Assembly: GCA_947632385.1 (NCBI GenBank)
Contig: CANRPD010000017.1
Location: forward strand, 1 to 40,564
Origin: an uncultured Clostridia bacterium
GTDB taxonomy: Bacteria > Bacillota > Clostridia > Oscillospirales > Acutalibacteraceae
DNA length: 40,564 bases
Reading direction: 5' to 3'
Part shown: piece by piece, positions 3,311 to 19,540 of the stretch
How the letters are laid out: each line of letters starts with the position of its first letter
Position numbering within the stretch: position 1 is the first letter of the stretch
Made by a program: the position numbers and the translations under genes
The notes under the pieces: generated by a model
Database searches by the model: none
Seen by the model: the letters and a program-made list of their open reading frames with translations, nothing else
What the model was told of the DNA's origin: nothing

Positions 3311-4651
3311 ATGAAACTCATCTACAACATCAAGGACAAGCCGAAGTTCGGTCAGCTGATCGTCTTCGCGGTCCAGCAGCTGCTGGCCATCATGGCGGCC
3401 ACCCTGGTGGTGCCGGTCATCGTGGGCAACGGCATGCAGCCCACCGCAGCCCTGTTCGGCGCCGGTGTGGGCACCCTGGTCTATGTGGCCTTCACCCGGG
3501 CCAAGAGCCCGGTGTTCCTGGGCTCCTCCTTTGCGTTCATCGGCTCCATGAGCGCGGCCTTTGCCGGCGCGGTCTCGGTGGAGGCCGGCTATCTGGGCCT
3601 GATCATCGGCGCGGTGTTCGCCGGGCTGGTGTATGTGGTCATCGCCCTGGTGGTGAAGCTGGTGGGCGTGGGCTGGATCGACCGGATCATGCCCAAGCAG
3701 GTCATCGGCCCCACGGTGGCCATCATCGGGCTGTCCCTGGCGGGCAACGCCATCGGCGACCTGCAGAAGGGCAACTACCAGGTGGAGGGCGCCCCCACGG
3801 CCAACGTGCTGCTGTGCATCCTGTGCGGCCTGGTGGCCCTGTTCGTCACCATGCTGTGCTCCGTCTACGGCAAAAAGACCGCCAAGCTGATCCCCTTCAT
3901 CTTCGGCATCCTCACCGGTTACGCCCTGGCGGCGGTGTTCACGCTCATCGGCAATGCCTCCGGCAACGACGCCCTCAAGATCATCGACTTCTCCGTGTTC
4001 TCCGCCGTCCACAGCGTGGTCTCCCTGCCGGAGTTCACCTTCCTCACCGCCATGAAGGGCACCACCGGCATCACCGGGTCCTACCTCAGCACCCTGGCGG
4101 TGGCCTATGTGCCCGTGGCCTTCGTGGTCTTTGCGGAGCATATCGCGGACCACAAGAACATCTCCTCCATCATCGAACAGGACCTGCTCACCGAGCCGGG
4201 CCTCCACCGCACCCTGCTGGGTGACGGCGTGGGCTCCATGGCGGGGGCCCTCTTCGGCGGCTGCCCCAACACCACCTACGGCGAATCCATCGCCTGCGTG
4301 GCCATCACCGGCAACGCCTCCGTGCTCACCATCATCGCGGCGGCCATCGGCGCCATCCTCATCGCCTTCATCACGCCCTTTGTGGCTTTCGTCAATTCCA
4401 TCCCCTCCTGCGTCATGGGCGGCGTGTGCATGGCGCTGTACGGCTTCATCGCGGTCTCCGGCCTGAAGATGGTCCAGAGCGTGGACCTGGAGGACAACCG
4501 CAACCTGTTCACCGTATCCGCGATCCTCATCGCGGGCATCGGCGGCCTGGTGCTCAATTTCGGCGAGATCCAGATCACCGCCGTGGCCACGGCCCTGATC
4601 CTGGGCATCGTGGTGAACGCCATGCTCCACCGGGGCAGCAAAGCCGCCTGA
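3311..4651 (+). CDS. uraA: Uracil/xanthine permease, NCS2 family
   Basis: This 447-residue polytopic membrane protein is a nucleobase:cation symporter-2 member that takes up uracil or xanthine with protons. It has the expected hydrophobic segments and the two substrate-site glutamates in FAEHIADHKN and NTTYGESIA. The QVIGPTVAIIGLSLAGNAI and CPNTTYGE stretches are typical of the UraA/PyrP branch. The ATG at 3311 follows GGAGG by eight bases. It is a single-gene unit with its own promoter and a strong terminator hairpin. Uracil is the likelier substrate, but xanthine cannot be excluded. Confidence 0.92.
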   Translation: MKLIYNIKDKPKFGQLIVFAVQQLLAIMAATLVVPVIVGNGMQPTAALFGAGVGTLVYVAFTRAKSPVFLGSSFAFIGSMSAAFAGAVSVEAGYLGLIIGAVFAGLVYVVIALVVKLVGVGWIDRIMPKQVIGPTVAIIGLSLAGNAIGDLQKGNYQVEGAPTANVLLCILCGLVALFVTMLCSVYGKKTAKLIPFIFGILTGYALAAVFTLIGNASGNDALKIIDFSVFSAVHSVVSLPEFTFLTAMKGTTGITGSYLSTLAVAYVPVAFVVFAEHIADHKNISSIIEQDLLTEPGLHRTLLGDGVGSMAGALFGGCPNTTYGESIACVAITGNASVLTIIAAAIGAILIAFITPFVAFVNSIPSCVMGGVCMALYGFIAVSGLKMVQSVDLEDNRNLFTVSAILIAGIGGLVLNFGEIQITAVATALILGIVVNAMLHRGSKAA

Positions 4652-4680
4652 CAAACCAAAACCGCAACGCTCCGTCGTCC

Positions 4681-4715
4681 ACAAGGCCGATGCCCACCCC
4701 GGGCATCGGCCTTGT
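4681..4715 (+). terminator. Terminator hairpin after the permease gene
   Basis: Perfect 15-bp inverted repeat (ACAAGGCCGATGCCC and its complement, 5-nt loop) 29 bp past the stop codon. The T-tract is weak (TTGTCC), so termination may rest on the very stable stem. Confidence 0.75.
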
Positions 4716-4744
4716 CCGTGGTCCGTAGCCGGACCGGCCGTTGT

Positions 4745-4850
4745 CGCGGGGCGCGCGGTCCCCGCGCTTTACGCCTACGGGACGAAAATGGGTCGTCGCG
4801 CCCACCGGTCCGTGCCCGGACGGGCCAGGTCGCGCCGTGCGCGTCCCGCG
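4745..4850. repeat. Structured intergenic element A (long imperfect palindrome)
   Basis: CGCGGGGCGCGC (4745-4756) pairs with GCGCGTCCCGCG (4839-4850) with one G-T wobble, enclosing about 80 bp. Inside lie GACGA/TCGTC and GTCCG/CGGAC hairpins. The left arm can instead fold locally (CGCGGGG/CCCCGCG). The GTCCCGC motif in the right arm recurs in the outer stem of element C (18226-18327). No gene is seen here. Confidence 0.5.
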
Positions 4851-4924
4851 CTGATAACTGCTGGAAAAAAGCGAGTAGTCACGCCCATCGATTTGCAAAA
4901 CCGGCAGGCCCCCACCCGCCTCCC

Positions 4925-5009
4925 CCGTCTCGCCGCCTGCCTGCGGCAGGCGCTTTTGCTCCGCAAAAGGAAGGGTGGGCCAAGAACAGGCCCACCCTCC
5001 GCGAGACGG
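4925..5009. repeat. Structured intergenic element B (outer stem enclosing three hairpins)
   Basis: The outer stem CCGTCTCGC (4925-4933) / GCGAGACGG (5001-5009) is perfect. It encloses three perfect hairpins back to back: GCCTGCC/GGCAGGC (4935-4951), CTTTTGC/GCAAAAG (4953-4969) and AGGGTGGGCC/GGCCCACCCT (4972-4998). Only about seven bases are left outside stems and loops. Element C at 18226-18327 has the same order of parts. It lies between the convergent permease and ABC exporter genes. Confidence 0.85.
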
Positions 5010-5010
5010 C

Positions 5011-5091
5011 GCCCCTGCCGGGGCAGGCCAAGTCGCAGCCCCTGCCGGGGCAGAGCAAGTCGCGGCCCCTGCCGGGGCAGGGCAAGCCGCG
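5011..5091. repeat. 27-bp tandem repeat, three copies
   Basis: Copies at 5011-5037, 5038-5064 and 5065-5091 differ at only a few bases. Each begins GCCCCTGCCGGGGC, a hairpin (GCCCC/GGGGC), followed by AAGTCGC or AAGCCGC. The block directly follows element B. It is not a CRISPR array: there are no spacers. Confidence 0.9.
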
Positions 5092-5200
5092 CCATGGTTT
5101 CTTCATTCGTCCAGTCAAGTGCCGCGCCGAAAGTGTCTGGAACCCGCCCCAACCCCCGCAAACCCCCCCGGGATCCTGCCGCTGCCCGTCCCCAGGCCGC

Positions 5201-5231
5201 AAAAAGCCCCCCGGCGGTGAGCCGGAGGGCT
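5201..5231 (-). terminator. Terminator of the ABC exporter operon
   Basis: On the minus strand an 11-bp stem (AGCCCTCCGGC against GCCGGGGGGCT, one mismatch, 5-nt loop) is followed by TTTTT. It lies 11 bp after the stop of the second exporter gene. Confidence 0.85.
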
Positions 5232-5241
5232 GGGGCACGGA

Positions 5242-7155
5242 TCAGGACCGCGCGGCTTTGGCGTTCGCGGCCTTCAAGGCCATCTGCTGGGCCTCGAACT
5301 GCAGCGAGTAGAGCTGGTAATACCGGCCCCGGAGCTTCAGCAGCTCCTGGTGGTTGCCCTGCTCCTTGATCTCGCCGTGAGACAGCAGGATGATGTTGTC
5401 CGCGTGCTGGATGGTGGACAGGCGGTGGGCCACGATGAGCATGGTGCCCACGCTCTTCATCTTCTCCAGGGATTCCTGGATGAGGATCTCGGTCTCGGTG
5501 TCGATGTTGGCGGTGGCCTCGTCCAGGATCATCACGGCGGGGGAGTGGATGATGGTCCGGGCAAAGCTCAGCAGCTGGCGCTGGCCGGCGGAGAAGTTGT
5601 TGCCCCGCTCCCGCACCACCTCGTCCAGGCCGCCCTCCAGGCGGTTGATGAAGTGGTCCGCGTTGACATACTTGCAGGCCTCCCAGATCTGCTCGTCGGT
5701 GAAGCTCTCCTCCCGCAGGACGATGTTGCTGCGGATGGTGCCGGAGAACAGGAACACGTCCTGGAGCATCTGGCCGAAGAACCGCCGCAGGCACGAGATC
5801 TTGATGTGCTTGATGTCGATGCCGTCGATGAGGATCTGCCCCTTCTGGATGTCGTAGTTGCGGCAGATCAGGGACAGGATGGTGGTCTTGCCGGAGCCGG
5901 TGGCGCCCACGAAGGCCACGGTCTGCTTGGGATAGACGTGGAAGGAGACGCCCTTGAGCACCCATTCCCCGGGGTTGTAGGCGAACCACACGTCCTTGAA
6001 CTCGATCTCGCCCTTCAGCTCGGTGAGCTCGATGGCGTCGGGCTCATCGGTGAGCTCGGGCACCATGTCCAGGATGGAGAAGATCTTCTCCGCCGAGGCA
6101 AAGGCCGACTGCAGCATGTTGAACTGCTCCGCCAGGGTCTGGATGGGGTTGAAGAACTTGGAGATGTAGCTGTAGAAGGAGACCAGCACGGCGCTGGTGA
6201 TCACCTGGCCCATGAACTCCACGTTGCGGATGACGCCCCGGCCCGCCAGATACAGCAGGCACATCACGGAGGAGATGTAGATCATGTACACCATGGGCCG
6301 GAAGATGCCGAAGACGAAGGTCTGCTCCTGCTTGGCCTTGCGAAGCTTGTCGCTGCGCTGGAGGAAGTCCTGCATCTTCACCTGCTCCCGGTTGAAGATC
6401 TGGGTGATCTTGATGCCGGAGAGGTTCTCGGACAGGTAGGTGTTGATGTCCGTGGTGGCATCCTTCACCCGGCGGAAGATGCGGCGGGTGAACTTGCGGA
6501 AGATCACGGTGAACAGCACCAGGAAGGGGATGAAGCAGATGACCATCAGGGTCAGGATGTAGTTGAGCAGCAGCATGGCCACCAGCACGCCCATGATCAT
6601 GAAGACGTTGCGCACCATGTTCACGAAAATGTTGGTGAACATCATGGAGATGGCGTTGGTGTCGTTGGTGACACGGGTCACCAGCTTGCCCACGGGGATC
6701 TGGTTGAGCTGGTTGTGGGACAGGGACTGGATGTGGGTGTACACGTCCAGGCGCAGGTTGGAGAGGATCCGCTGGCCCACCTTCTGCAGGGTGATGGACT
6801 GGAAGTAGGTGCACAGCACCGAGACCACCAGCAGGGCGGCGTAAATGGCCACCCGGACGAACAGGGCGGACAGGGGGAAGTCCCCGGCCACCAGCTCCAC
6901 GATGTTGCCCATGATCAGGGGGCTCACCAGGTCATAGCCGATGGAGACCGCCATGATGGCGAACACCAGCAGGAAGGACTTCCAGTGGGGGACGGCGTAG
7001 GGCAGCATCCGGCGGAGGATCTCGCCGTCGGGAACGTTGCGGTCGAAGCCGATGGCCTCTTTCTTGTTCTTGATGCCCGCATAGGCGATGATGAAGGCCA
7101 CAGCGAAGATGCTGATGATGGCCCCCACGATCAGGATGGGAAGATACTCACGCAT
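5242..7155 (-). CDS. ABC exporter half-transporter, subunit 2 (catalytic-Glu subunit)
   Basis: This 637-residue protein has a six-helix exporter membrane domain (about 55-350) and an ATPase domain (about 385-620). An extra membrane segment near residues 5-27 precedes the core. Walker A GATGSGKT is at 417-424, the signature is the non-canonical FSAGQ (521-525), Walker B ends LDEAT with catalytic Glu546, and the H-loop is AHRLST. It overlaps the partner gene by 8 bp (ATGCGTGA), so the two are probably translationally coupled and form a heterodimer. The ATG follows AAGGAGG. Such MdlAB/BmrCD/TM287-288-like pairs export drugs, lipids or peptides; the substrate here is unknown. Confidence 0.93.
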   Translation of the reverse strand: MREYLPILIVGAIISIFAVAFIIAYAGIKNKKEAIGFDRNVPDGEILRRMLPYAVPHWKSFLLVFAIMAVSIGYDLVSPLIMGNIVELVAGDFPLSALFVRVAIYAALLVVSVLCTYFQSITLQKVGQRILSNLRLDVYTHIQSLSHNQLNQIPVGKLVTRVTNDTNAISMMFTNIFVNMVRNVFMIMGVLVAMLLLNYILTLMVICFIPFLVLFTVIFRKFTRRIFRRVKDATTDINTYLSENLSGIKITQIFNREQVKMQDFLQRSDKLRKAKQEQTFVFGIFRPMVYMIYISSVMCLLYLAGRGVIRNVEFMGQVITSAVLVSFYSYISKFFNPIQTLAEQFNMLQSAFASAEKIFSILDMVPELTDEPDAIELTELKGEIEFKDVWFAYNPGEWVLKGVSFHVYPKQTVAFVGATGSGKTTILSLICRNYDIQKGQILIDGIDIKHIKISCLRRFFGQMLQDVFLFSGTIRSNIVLREESFTDEQIWEACKYVNADHFINRLEGGLDEVVRERGNNFSAGQRQLLSFARTIIHSPAVMILDEATANIDTETEILIQESLEKMKSVGTMLIVAHRLSTIQHADNIILLSHGEIKEQGNHQELLKLRGRYYQLYSLQFEAQQMALKAANAKAARS

Positions 7156-18225: not shown

Positions 18226-18327
18226 GGCTCCGCCGTCCCGCAGCCCGGCCCCGGGCCGGGCGCTTTTTGCCCCAGGCAAAAAGCCAGGCGATGCGCTTGG
18301 CGCATCGCCTGGCGGGACGGCGGGGCC
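18226..18327. repeat. Structured intergenic element C (outer stem enclosing three hairpins)
   Basis: A 16-bp outer stem (18226-18241 with 18312-18327, one mismatch; core CCGTCCCGC/GCGGGACGG) encloses three perfect hairpins end to end: GCCCGGC/GCCGGGC (18243-18261), GCTTTTTGCC/GGCAAAAAGC (18262-18284) and CAGGCGATGCG/CGCATCGCCTG (18285-18311). Only A18242 is unpaired at the junction. It lies in the 258-bp gap between ispDF and the DUF3343 gene, both on the minus strand. There is no U-tract on either side, so it is not a plain terminator. Confidence 0.9.
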
Positions 18328-18379: not shown

Positions 18380-19540
18380 TCACACCGGCACCATCAGGCA
18401 CACCGCCGTGGCGGAGATGCCCTCTCCGGCGCCGGTAAAGCCCAGGCCCTCCTCCGTAGTGGCCTTGACACTGACCTGCTCCGGCGGGACCGCACAGACC
18501 TGGGCGATCTTCTGCCGCATGGCCCCGATGTAGGGCGCCAGCTTGGGCCGCTGGGCCACCACGGTGACGTCCAGGTTGCCCACCCGCCAGCCGTTTTGGG
18601 CCGCCAGCTCAATGACCCTGCCGAACAGAACGAGACTGTCCGCGCCCTCGTACTGGGGATCGGTATCCGGGAACAGGTGCCCGATGTCTCCCAGGGCCAG
18701 CGCCCCCAGCACGGCGTCCGCAGCGGCGTGGAGCAGCACATCTGCGTCAGAATGGCCCAAAAGGCCCTTGTCCCAGGGGATCTCCACCCCGCCCAGGATC
18801 AACTTGCGGCCCGGCACCAGCCGGTGCACGTCATAGCCGTGTCCGATGCGCATGGCTCGCTGCCCCCCTTCCCCCGCCAGAGCCCGGATCATCGCTAAGT
18901 CCTCCGGCGTGGTCAATTTCAGATTGCGGTACTCCCCGGCGGTGAGCTTGACCTTCCCCCCCGCCGCCTCGATGAGGCCGCAGTCGTCGGTGTAGGTCCT
19001 GCCCTCCTGCCGGGCCTTTTCCAGGGCATAGAGGTACAGGTCCCGCTTAAAGGCCTGGGGCGTCTGCACGTTAAAAAGCCGGCTGCGGTCCAGGGGCGCC
19101 TCCGCGAAAGCGCCCCCCAGCTTACAGGTGTCCTTGGCAGGGACCGCCGCCGTGGCAGCCCCGTGCTCCAGGGCATCCCGGCAGACCCGGTCGAAGAGCG
19201 CCGGACTGGCCAGGGGCCGGGCGCCGTCGTGGACCAGCACATAGGAGACTCGGTCCGAAAGCGCCGCAGCGCCCTTTTCCACGGATTCCTGCCGGGTGGC
19301 GCCGCCGGTGACCACCCGGACCGGGACCGGGCAGTCTGCGGTCACAGCGGCCGCAGCAGGGAGATCTTCTGCACGGACCACCAGGACGATCTCACACACA
19401 TAGCCGCAGGCGGCCATCGCCTCCAAACTCCACCACAGCACCGGCTTGCCGGCCAGGGGCAGCAGCACCTTGGGGCCTGTCCCGCCCATACGGGTGGAGC
19501 TCCCCGCCGCCACCAGGATCCCGCCAAAGTTTTTTTCCAT
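18380..19540 (-). CDS. ispDF: Bifunctional IspD-IspF, isoprenoid (MEP) pathway
   Basis: This 386-residue fusion carries out two non-consecutive MEP-pathway steps. Residues 1-228 are IspD, 2-C-methyl-D-erythritol 4-phosphate cytidylyltransferase: [12 protein letters not shown] nucleotide loop, VHDGARP and QTPQAF. Residues 230-386 are IspF, the 2,4-cyclodiphosphate synthase: GHGYDVHR (Asp237 and His239 metal ligands), [13 protein letters not shown] and [10 protein letters not shown]. IspE, which acts between them, is not in the window. Fusions of this kind are known in several bacterial groups. ATG at 19540 is preferred; the 18 codons upstream lie in the promoter. Confidence 0.96.

What the first reader, a model, noticed from the sequence alone, without database searches (positions are those of the whole stretch)
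4925..5009. Element B: a compact outer-stem-plus-three-hairpin structure in a convergent gap
Seen directly: a perfect 9-bp outer stem encloses three perfect hairpins with almost no unpaired bases. It has the same order of parts as the element at 18226-18327: GC-rich hairpin 1, A/T-tract hairpin 2, variable hairpin 3. Outer stems are CCGTCTCGC and CCGTCCCGC, differing at one T-A to C-G pair. Hairpin 1 arms GCCTGCC and GCCCGGC differ at two positions, both compensated on the other arm. Pairing-preserving change between two copies suggests selection on the fold, as RNA or as single-stranded DNA. I recognise no known RNA family or REP element.
Basis: partly seen in the sequence, partly recalled or inferred. 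Interest (0 to 1): 0.75.

Follow-up and report, generated by a model that had tools for sequence, protein, structure and literature searches.

The report
Cloverleaf elements after gene ends
The 85-base folded element is one of dozens of three-armed cloverleaf structures in this bacterium, with others in two related species; many sit just after genes, and most of those here look like two transcription stop signals facing each other, clamped by an extra stem whose purpose is unknown.

Summary
B (4925-5009) and A (18233-18320) are two of at least 71 three-armed cloverleaves in the stretches of this genome that I fetched: 32 near-identical relatives of B and 39 sequence-diverse ones. A sequence-blind scan of 400 kb found 25 three-armed structures; three shuffles gave none. 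A congener, G016, has 15 in 794 kb; G025 has 5 in 41 kb. Helices covary. Diverse copies lie within 50 nt of a stop codon in 28 of 39, B-like copies in 0 of 32. The middle arm has a T-run on its 5' side in 63 of 71 and an A-run in none, so each strand reads "GC hairpin + CTTTTTGC". At 14 orthologous gene ends the partner species has a cloverleaf in 2 and, by eye, an ordinary terminator hairpin in 7 (3 by a strict rule). Most likely: head-to-head bidirectional terminators closed by an outer stem; B itself is a copy in a probably mobile mosaic repeat. Termination is inferred. T-less copies (9 of 15 in G016) and the outer stem's role are unexplained. No Rfam match; no RAYT gene found.

The parts
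4925..4933 (+). outer stem, 5' arm CCGTCTCGC
4934..4952 (+). arm 1, GC hairpin CGCCTGCC-TGC-GGCAGGCG; followed by CTTTTGC it is a terminator-like site on the + strand
4953..4969 (+). arm 2, T-first/A-second hairpin CTTTTGC-TCC-GCAAAAG (T-runs of both strands paired with each other)
4972..4998 (+). arm 3, GC hairpin AGGGTGGGCC-AAGAACA-GGCCCACCCT; the hairpin that precedes the T-run on the - strand (one search did not list it as a terminator-like site); the arm that varies most among copies
5001..5009 (+). outer stem, 3' arm GCGAGACGG
4890..4924 (+). upstream module GATTTGCAAAACCGGC..CCCACCCGCCTCCC; variants of it, or of a second module ending in the same C-rich stretch, precede the main-family copies but not the four other copies
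5010..5091 (+). three tandem CCCCTGCCGGGGCAGG-type hairpin units, part of the mosaic array
18233..18320 (+). element A, diverse-subfamily cloverleaf (outer stem extends to 18230-18323); terminator-like sites on both strands (18243-18261 +, 18313-18283 -)
3311..4651 (+). gene upstream of B, Xan_ur_permease
5242..7155 (-). convergent gene downstream of B, ABC transporter
18380..19540 (-). ispD-ispF fusion gene whose 3' end is 56-59 nt from element A

Best explanation
Element B is one copy of a class of three-armed cloverleaf elements, most of whose sequence-diverse members punctuate gene 3' ends. SHOWN: the fold, its copy number, pairing-preserving change, the preference of the diverse copies for the first tens of bases after a stop codon, and the ordered middle arm (T-run first, A-run second). 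INFERRED: arms 1 and 3 are two intrinsic-terminator hairpins facing each other, one per strand, and the middle arm is their two T-runs paired together, so RNA polymerase arriving from either side meets 'GC hairpin + CTTTTTGC' and stops. INFERRED and weakest: the outer stem, present in nearly all cases here and not part of ordinary terminators, makes read-through RNA (or extruded DNA) close into a compact four-way junction that backs up termination or protects the RNA end. Element B itself is probably not the native terminator of its neighbours: it lies in a mosaic repeat array and belongs to the near-identical main subfamily.
For: Sequence-blind scan of 400 kb of G000: 25 three-armed, 4 two-armed, 4 four-armed; three shuffles gave 0 three-armed and 2 two-armed. 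G-U-tolerant scan of intergenic DNA, both strands: three-armed 70 vs 7 shuffled in G000 and 63 vs 18 in G016; two-armed not enriched (45 vs 59; 111 vs 104). Middle arm T-first in 32 of 32 main, 31 of 39 diverse and 6 of 15 G016 elements, A-first in none; a T-run (>=3) in the 5' side of arm 1 or 3 in 1 of 54 diverse and G016 elements. Hairpin-T/A hairpin-hairpin triples sought without an outer stem: 22 in G000 (at most 11 of them main family), all T-first, 20 of 22 with an outer stem of 8-12 bp, none in one shuffle. Distance to the nearest stop codon: within 50 nt for 28 of 39 diverse and 11 of 15 G016 elements, 0 of 32 main copies. In the two-strand set 3 of 35 lie in divergent gaps, against 111 of 500 background gaps. 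Of 42 gene ends within 60 nt of a diverse or G016 cloverleaf, a terminator-like site lies inside the element in 26, only elsewhere nearby in 2, nowhere in 14. At 14 distinct orthologous gene ends the partner genome has a cloverleaf in 2, an ordinary hairpin + T-run in 7 by eye, neither clearly in 5; a strict rule accepts 3 of the 12 non-cloverleaf ends.
Against: No transcript data. 9 of 15 elements in G016 and 8 of 39 diverse ones in G000 lack a T-run of three or more in the middle arm. In G025 none of the five has a T-run in the middle arm; one has it in arm 1 and one in arm 3. T-runs are only 3-6 long. A transcript ending at the first T-run would not contain the 3' outer arm, so termination alone does not explain the covarying outer stem. 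Only 26 of 71 G000 elements lie in convergent gaps, where a two-sided stop is most useful; 34 lie between co-directional genes, 6 between divergent ones and 5 have one side unassigned. The main family, to which B belongs, is not tied to gene ends (0 of 32 within 50 nt). The exchange with ordinary terminators rests largely on reading folds by eye: a strict rule finds a terminator at 3 of 12 orthologous ends. B lies 273 and 232 nt from its neighbours' stops, and the - gene has its own hairpin + CTTTTTGC near 5199-5230 (seen directly; not listed).
Confidence: 0.5

Rival explanations
1. A structure-dependent mobile or amplifying repeat (REP/MITE-like). The cloverleaf is needed by a DNA-processing enzyme acting on single-stranded or cruciform DNA; it accumulates after stop codons because it is harmless there, and terminator activity is a by-product.
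For: 36 of the 40 pattern copies are near-identical and share flanking modules. Main-family arrays look inserted: a 774-nt gap in G000 against 42 nt between the orthologous genes in G016, and 625 against 52. Outer arms tend to differ between species. Near-identical diverse pairs exist (C1:7782/8279; C10:54663/C32:9014). The CM search hits only G000 and G016 of 36 genomes.
Against: Two orthologous sites carry a cloverleaf in both species, so some are probably inherited. No Y1/RAYT transposase found in G000, G016 or G025; other transposase families were not searched. The T-first middle arm is not explained by mobility. Target duplications were not tested. Of four main-family gaps with both flanks on one G016 stretch, two are longer in G016.
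Confidence: 0.3
2. A DNA-level element: a cruciform or four-way junction at gene ends that absorbs supercoils or binds a junction-binding protein such as HU or gyrase.
For: Tight four-way junction (0-1 unpaired nt in 23 of 35 two-strand elements). Those elements fold on both strands with G-U pairs of only 1.7% and 0.8%. Stable as DNA. The outer stem is conserved, which a terminated RNA would not need.
Against: Two-strand elements are by selection poor in G-U pairs, so that figure is biased. The T-first rule of the middle arm is not predicted. No protein or topology data.
Confidence: 0.12
3. A structured RNA proper: a 3'-UTR stabiliser or a small RNA processed from transcripts that read through the element.
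For: Cloverleaf of fairly constant size (median 86-88 nt) next to stop codons; T-less copies in G016 and G025 would fit an exonuclease barrier.
Against: No loop sequence shared across the diverse set that I could see; no promoter-like site around A or B; no Rfam match.
Confidence: 0.07
4. Chance folding of GC-rich DNA.
For: The genome is 64-66% GC and such DNA folds easily; the looser first scan gave similar numbers in shuffled DNA (57 against 45 three-armed); one shuffle of a G025 stretch gave a three-armed structure.
Against: With stricter pairing rules 25 against 0 in three shuffles; 40 outer-stem pairs against 0 for the control pattern; covariation; congeners of similar GC (G026 0.62-0.64, G023 0.615, G011 0.608) had none in 18-40 kb each.
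Confidence: 0.01

Closest known systems
Intrinsic (Rho-independent) terminators, including bidirectional ones (PMC1852404, PMC5381666 and PMC8269248; passages seen)
   Same: GC hairpin followed by a T-run just after stop codons; could work on both strands; compensatory change, as described for Bacillus cereus terminators
   Different: The bidirectional type described in PMC1852404 is one hairpin with an A-run on one side and a T-run on the other. Here two hairpins flank a T-run/A-run that pair with each other, and the whole is closed by an outer stem into three arms
REP elements, GTAG- and CGTC-tagged (PMC3733652; passages seen)
   Same: Palindromic, intergenic, many copies; proposed roles in termination and RNA stability
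   Different: REPs are 20-40 bp palindromes with an unpaired tag at one end; these are about 85-nt three-armed cloverleaves without such a tag, and no RAYT gene was found
Paired DNA-uptake signals that act as terminators in Neisseria (PMC1852404; passages seen)
   Same: Inverted copies of a short word at gene ends form a stem
   Different: The outer-arm word CCGTCTCGC is not over-represented as single copies (11 outside cloverleaves in 441 kb; median 9 for 200 words of the same composition), and outer arms differ between copies
bcr1 of Bacillus cereus (recalled; seen here only in a search listing)
   Same: Dispersed repeat with conserved multi-hairpin structure (recalled)
   Different: No sequence relation tested; bcr1 is longer and is a sequence family (recalled)

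Membership tests
Intrinsic terminator | GC-rich hairpin directly followed by a T-run on the transcribed strand | tested here: met
   Middle arm T-first in 63 of 71 G000 elements, but only 6 of 15 in G016 and 0 of 5 in G025; terminator-like calls for arm 1 of B and for arms 1 and 3 of A. Met for most elements of this genome, not for the whole class
Intrinsic terminator | RNA 3' ends map to the T-run | not testable with these tools
   no transcript data
Single-hairpin bidirectional terminator | A-run before and T-run after one shared hairpin | tested here: not met
   in the middle arm the T-run precedes the A-run in every T-type element; A-first 0 of 86 and 0 of 27 triples. One G016 element (L320:8349) has an A-run/T-run around arm 1 instead
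REP element | 20-40 bp palindrome | tested here: not met
   median 86-88 nt, three arms plus outer stem
REP element | unpaired GTAG or CGTC tag at one end | tested here: not met
   CGTC occurs inside the paired outer arm of the CCGTCTCGC subfamily; many diverse outer arms lack it (read by eye)
REP element | RAYT (Y1_Tnp, PF01797) in the genome | tested here: not met
   0 in G000 (98% complete), G016 (81%) and G025 (85%); 9 of 29 genomes of the genus have it
MITE-like mobile element | terminal inverted repeats with target duplication and empty sites | tested here: inconclusive
   outer stem could serve as inverted repeats; two empty-like sites for main-family arrays, two other gaps longer in G016; target duplications not tested
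Known RNA family (Rfam 15) | covariance-model match | tested here: not met
   0 in window, 0 at E<=1 in 4650-5250; in 9 further loci one match, a T-box away from the cloverleaves
DNA-uptake signal pairs | word over-represented as single copies | tested here: not met
   (441 kb of this genome)

The most novel reading that the evidence does not exclude
A new class of bacterial gene-end element defined by shape alone: a tight four-way junction with exactly three hairpin arms, kept after stop codons while its sequence turns over. It is found so far in three species of one genus. The outer clamp acts on read-through RNA or on DNA, and termination by internal T-runs is one variant of it rather than its core function.
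Probability: 0.33. Interest if true: 0.8.

Novelty: new variant of a known kind. Interest (0 to 1): 0.62.

Why it matters
If the terminator reading holds, this is a new architecture for stopping transcription from both sides with one 85-nt module, possibly a useful genetic part, and a case where a lineage rebuilt a fair share of its gene ends with it. If the outer clamp has a role of its own, then a shape conserved without sequence marks gene ends, which sequence-based searches miss: R2 found only G000 and G016 of 36 genomes and R1 only the same two of 60 (that set held G025), while the shape scan also found G025. It would make testable why three arms are kept.

Tried and rejected
Chance: rejected by strict-scan shuffles. 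A first, looser scan did not separate real from shuffled (57 vs 45 three-armed in G000; its G016 tally was cut from the output) and was replaced by stricter rules. Rfam families: none. REP/RAYT: rejected. Uptake-signal pairs: rejected. Naming the organism and finding other taxa with the outer-stem pattern in genome contigs: 114 stretches matched and 80 were listed; the 80 listed were folded, and of the 12 most stable, which I looked at, none had three hairpins in an outer stem. A pattern for the T/A hairpin alone in the genus gave 23 loci, of which 21 were folded; they were mostly other hairpins, but L146 proved to be a further G000 cloverleaf. A G-U-tolerant fold of all fetched census stretches timed out and was repeated on intergenic DNA only. 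Alignments A1, A3, A4 and A5 were not used for counts; A5 had a wrong coordinate for L146 and was replaced by A6. Literature searches (open-licence library only, listings) showed no paper that I recognised as describing a three-armed cloverleaf terminator.

Full report
WHAT IS THERE. Window 4925-5009 holds a 9-bp outer stem around three hairpins, as reported, stable as RNA (z -5.67) and as single-stranded DNA (z -7.95). Element A at 18233-18320 has the same plan and its outer stem extends to 12 bp. My own simple gene finder places B in a convergent gap 273 and 232 nt from the two stop codons (permease gene 3311-4651 +, ABC transporter gene 5242-7155 -), and A 56-59 nt after the stop of an ispD-ispF gene.

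COPIES. The outer-stem pattern alone occurs 40 times in the window's genome (G000, 1.96 Mb), with 0 for the reversed control. 36 of these 40 are near-identical to B and share upstream modules; four differ in sequence. A covariance model from the 40 copies (R1) gave 52 rows in G000 and 2 in G016, none in the other 58 of 60 genomes. A model from 10 diverse copies (R2) gave 108 rows in G000 (many elements match on both strands) and 6 rows at 3 places in G016, none in the other 34 of 36 genomes. In the stretches that I fetched, a structure scan finds 71 non-redundant three-armed elements in G000, 32 main-family and 39 diverse, and 15 in 794 kb of G016.

SEQUENCE-BLIND TEST. Requiring only a perfect outer stem of at least 7 bp around well-paired hairpins, 400 kb of G000 gave 25 three-armed, 4 two-armed and 4 four-armed structures; three shuffles together gave 0 three-armed and 2 two-armed. 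The first 394 kb of G016 gave 10 three-armed and 4 two-armed; three shuffles gave one two-armed. All 794 kb of G016 gave 15 three-armed and 5 two-armed; two shuffles gave 3 two-armed. Allowing G-U pairs, intergenic DNA on both strands gave 70 vs 7 shuffled three-armed in G000 and 63 vs 18 in G016, with no excess of two-armed ones. So the preference for three arms is real. Samples of 18-40 kb from 22 other genomes gave three-armed elements only in G025: 2 in 20 kb, although three shuffles of that stretch also gave one. A further 21 kb of G025 gave 3 more and a further 20 kb of G026 none, with none in five shuffles. GC content does not explain the distribution: G000 is 0.64, G016 0.61 and G025 0.64-0.66, while G026 (0.62-0.64), G023 (0.615) and G011 (0.608) gave none.

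COVARIATION. In alignment A6 (10 diverse copies, aligned by MAFFT) 85.6% of cells pair and 19 of 36 pairs have changes on both sides (shuffled mean 8.7, 0 of 500 as high). The two outer-stem helices are 100% and 92.6% paired, with 5 of their 10 pairs changed on both sides; arm 3 aligns worst (69.7%). Across 49 distinct outer arms each of ten positions shows at least three pair types; those arms were found by requiring pairing, so this illustrates rather than proves covariation. Elements seen on both strands have 1.7% (G000) and 0.8% (G016) G-U pairs, again partly because two-strand folding excludes G-U. The orthologous pair L302:8313-8407 (G000) and L329:12917-12998 (G016) keeps the cloverleaf with changed arms; at L061 / L328 the arms are wholly different but both are three-armed.

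WHERE THEY SIT. Distance to the nearest stop codon is 50 nt or less for 28 of 39 diverse G000 elements and 11 of 15 in G016, but for 0 of 32 main-family copies. In the strand-symmetric set from the census stretches (22 G000, 13 G016, main copies included) 25 of 35 lie within 48 nt of a stop codon and 3 lie in divergent gaps, whereas 111 of 500 gaps of at least 60 nt are divergent. The five G025 elements have a gene end within 83 nt. In G000, 18 of 152 gene ends with a gap of at least 60 nt have a cloverleaf within 100 nt, 37 others have a simple hairpin + T-run and 97 have neither by my strict rule; in G016 13, 37 and 279 of 329.

THE MIDDLE ARM. Its 5' side carries a T-run of at least 3 in 32 of 32 main, 31 of 39 diverse and 6 of 15 G016 elements, and an A-run in none. 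A T-run occurs in the 5' side of arm 1 or 3 in 1 of 54 diverse and G016 elements, and an A-run in 1. A search for three adjacent hairpins with a T- or A-rich middle one, not asking for an outer stem, found 22 in the window plus 400 kb of G000 (all T-first; 20 with an outer stem of 8-12 bp; the other two were found with outer stems of 10 and 7 bp) and none in one shuffle; in G016 5, all T-first, 2 with the outer stem. Those G000 stretches hold 11 main-family copies, so at least half of the 22 are diverse. A plain hairpin would be A-first as often as T-first, so this order points to termination on both strands, and the outer stem is part of the same module in this genome. The tool's own terminator scan lists arm 1 of B on the + strand and arms 1 and 3 of A on + and -; it does not list arm 3 of B.

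EXCHANGE WITH TERMINATORS. For 14 distinct orthologous gene ends at which one species has a cloverleaf, the other has a cloverleaf in 2, an ordinary hairpin + T-run in 7 and neither clearly in 5. The 7 were judged by eye from the printed folds; my strict rule accepts 3 of the 12, because in others the T-run is short or lies inside the stem. Of 42 gene ends within 60 nt of a diverse or G016 cloverleaf, 26 have a terminator-like site inside it, 2 only beside it and 14 none.

ELEMENT B AND THE MOSAIC. Main-family copies lie in arrays of other hairpin units. An AT-rich module has 13 copies in G000 and no full-length match in the other 59 genomes searched; by coordinates 8 of the 13 lie between two main-type copies, two of these being partial or chimeric. 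Two arrays sit between genes that are 774 and 625 nt apart in G000 but 42 and 52 nt apart in G016, so they were gained in G000 or lost in G016. Two other arrays with both flanks on one G016 stretch face longer gaps there. B is therefore best seen as a copy carried by a probably mobile mosaic, while element A and the other diverse copies are the better guide to function.

MECHANISM. I think the T-type elements are pairs of intrinsic terminators set head to head, sharing their T/A stretch (confidence 0.5). Shown: anatomy, position of the diverse copies, T-first rule. Suggestive: exchange with ordinary terminators. Inferred: termination itself. Not explained: why the outer stem is kept, since an RNA ended at the first T-run lacks its 3' arm; the T-less elements of G016 and G025; and why 34 of 71 G000 elements lie between co-directional genes. 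A structure-selected mobile repeat, or a DNA junction at gene ends, would explain the stem but not the T-first rule.

KNOWN RELATIVES. Bidirectional terminators are well known, in the form of one hairpin between an A-run and a T-run (PMC1852404, passages); compensatory change in terminators is known (PMC5381666, passages); bidirectional transcript ends in a GC-rich genus are described in PMC8269248 (passages; it cites Ju et al. 2019, which is not held). REPs (PMC3733652, passages) fail on length, tag and transposase. PMC2267715 (passages) surveys stem-loop families; its main text does not contain the word cloverleaf. I recognised no described three-armed terminator in nine listings from the open-licence library.

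VERDICT. Real, abundant, structurally constrained and not found described in these searches; most likely a new variant of bidirectional terminators, with a real chance that the conserved shape has a role of its own.

Noticed in passing
L047:3180-3360 (G000:C2:33679-33859) and 12 further places in G000: AT-rich module of about 165 nt with a TTTGTTCAAATATGAACAAA-type palindrome and two hairpins (by eye); 13 copies at 89-100% identity in G000, 8 of them between two main-type cloverleaves by coordinates, no full-length match in the 59 other genomes searched. It looks like an operator or promoter region without a gene.
   Followed up: partly
window 5010-5091; L047 near 2713; L065 (gene end near 1078): Mosaic hairpin units (CCCCTGCCGGGGCAGGGCAAGTCGCG, GTCCGTAGCCGGAC) form arrays around main-family cloverleaves; at the two gene ends looked at, the unit GTCCGTAG appears to supply the stop codon.
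   Followed up: partly
G000:C48:12521-12584 and G000:C10:8146-8207 (L057, L056): Chimeric copies in which arm 3 and the 3' outer arm are replaced by another repeat hairpin (GTCCGTGCCCGGAC), suggesting exchange between repeat units.
   Followed up: no
L311:10918-11026, L300:5967-6080, L316:7637-7783: Extreme cloverleaves with outer stems of 17-22 bp and -105 to -125 kcal/mol; the 22-bp one has no T-run in its middle arm of the usual kind.
   Followed up: no
G020, 24 places (for example L133): Another congener has 24 matches to GCTTTTTN{3,14}AAAAAGC, many with nearly the same loop (GCAAGAAT, GCAAGAG); the one folded is a long single hairpin: possibly a different amplified terminator-like hairpin.
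   Followed up: no
outer stems of diverse and G016 elements: The 5' outer arm is pyrimidine-rich: C or T in 33-44 of 44-49 arms at positions 1, 2, 4, 5, 6, 7 and 9 from the junction, so both strands read a C-rich stretch before the hairpin; a Rho-related role could be tested.
   Followed up: no
window 4681-4715: A 15-bp perfect hairpin about 30 nt after the stop of the permease gene, followed by no T-run.
   Followed up: no
L374:5030-5259 (G025): T-box leader above the gathering score.
   Followed up: no
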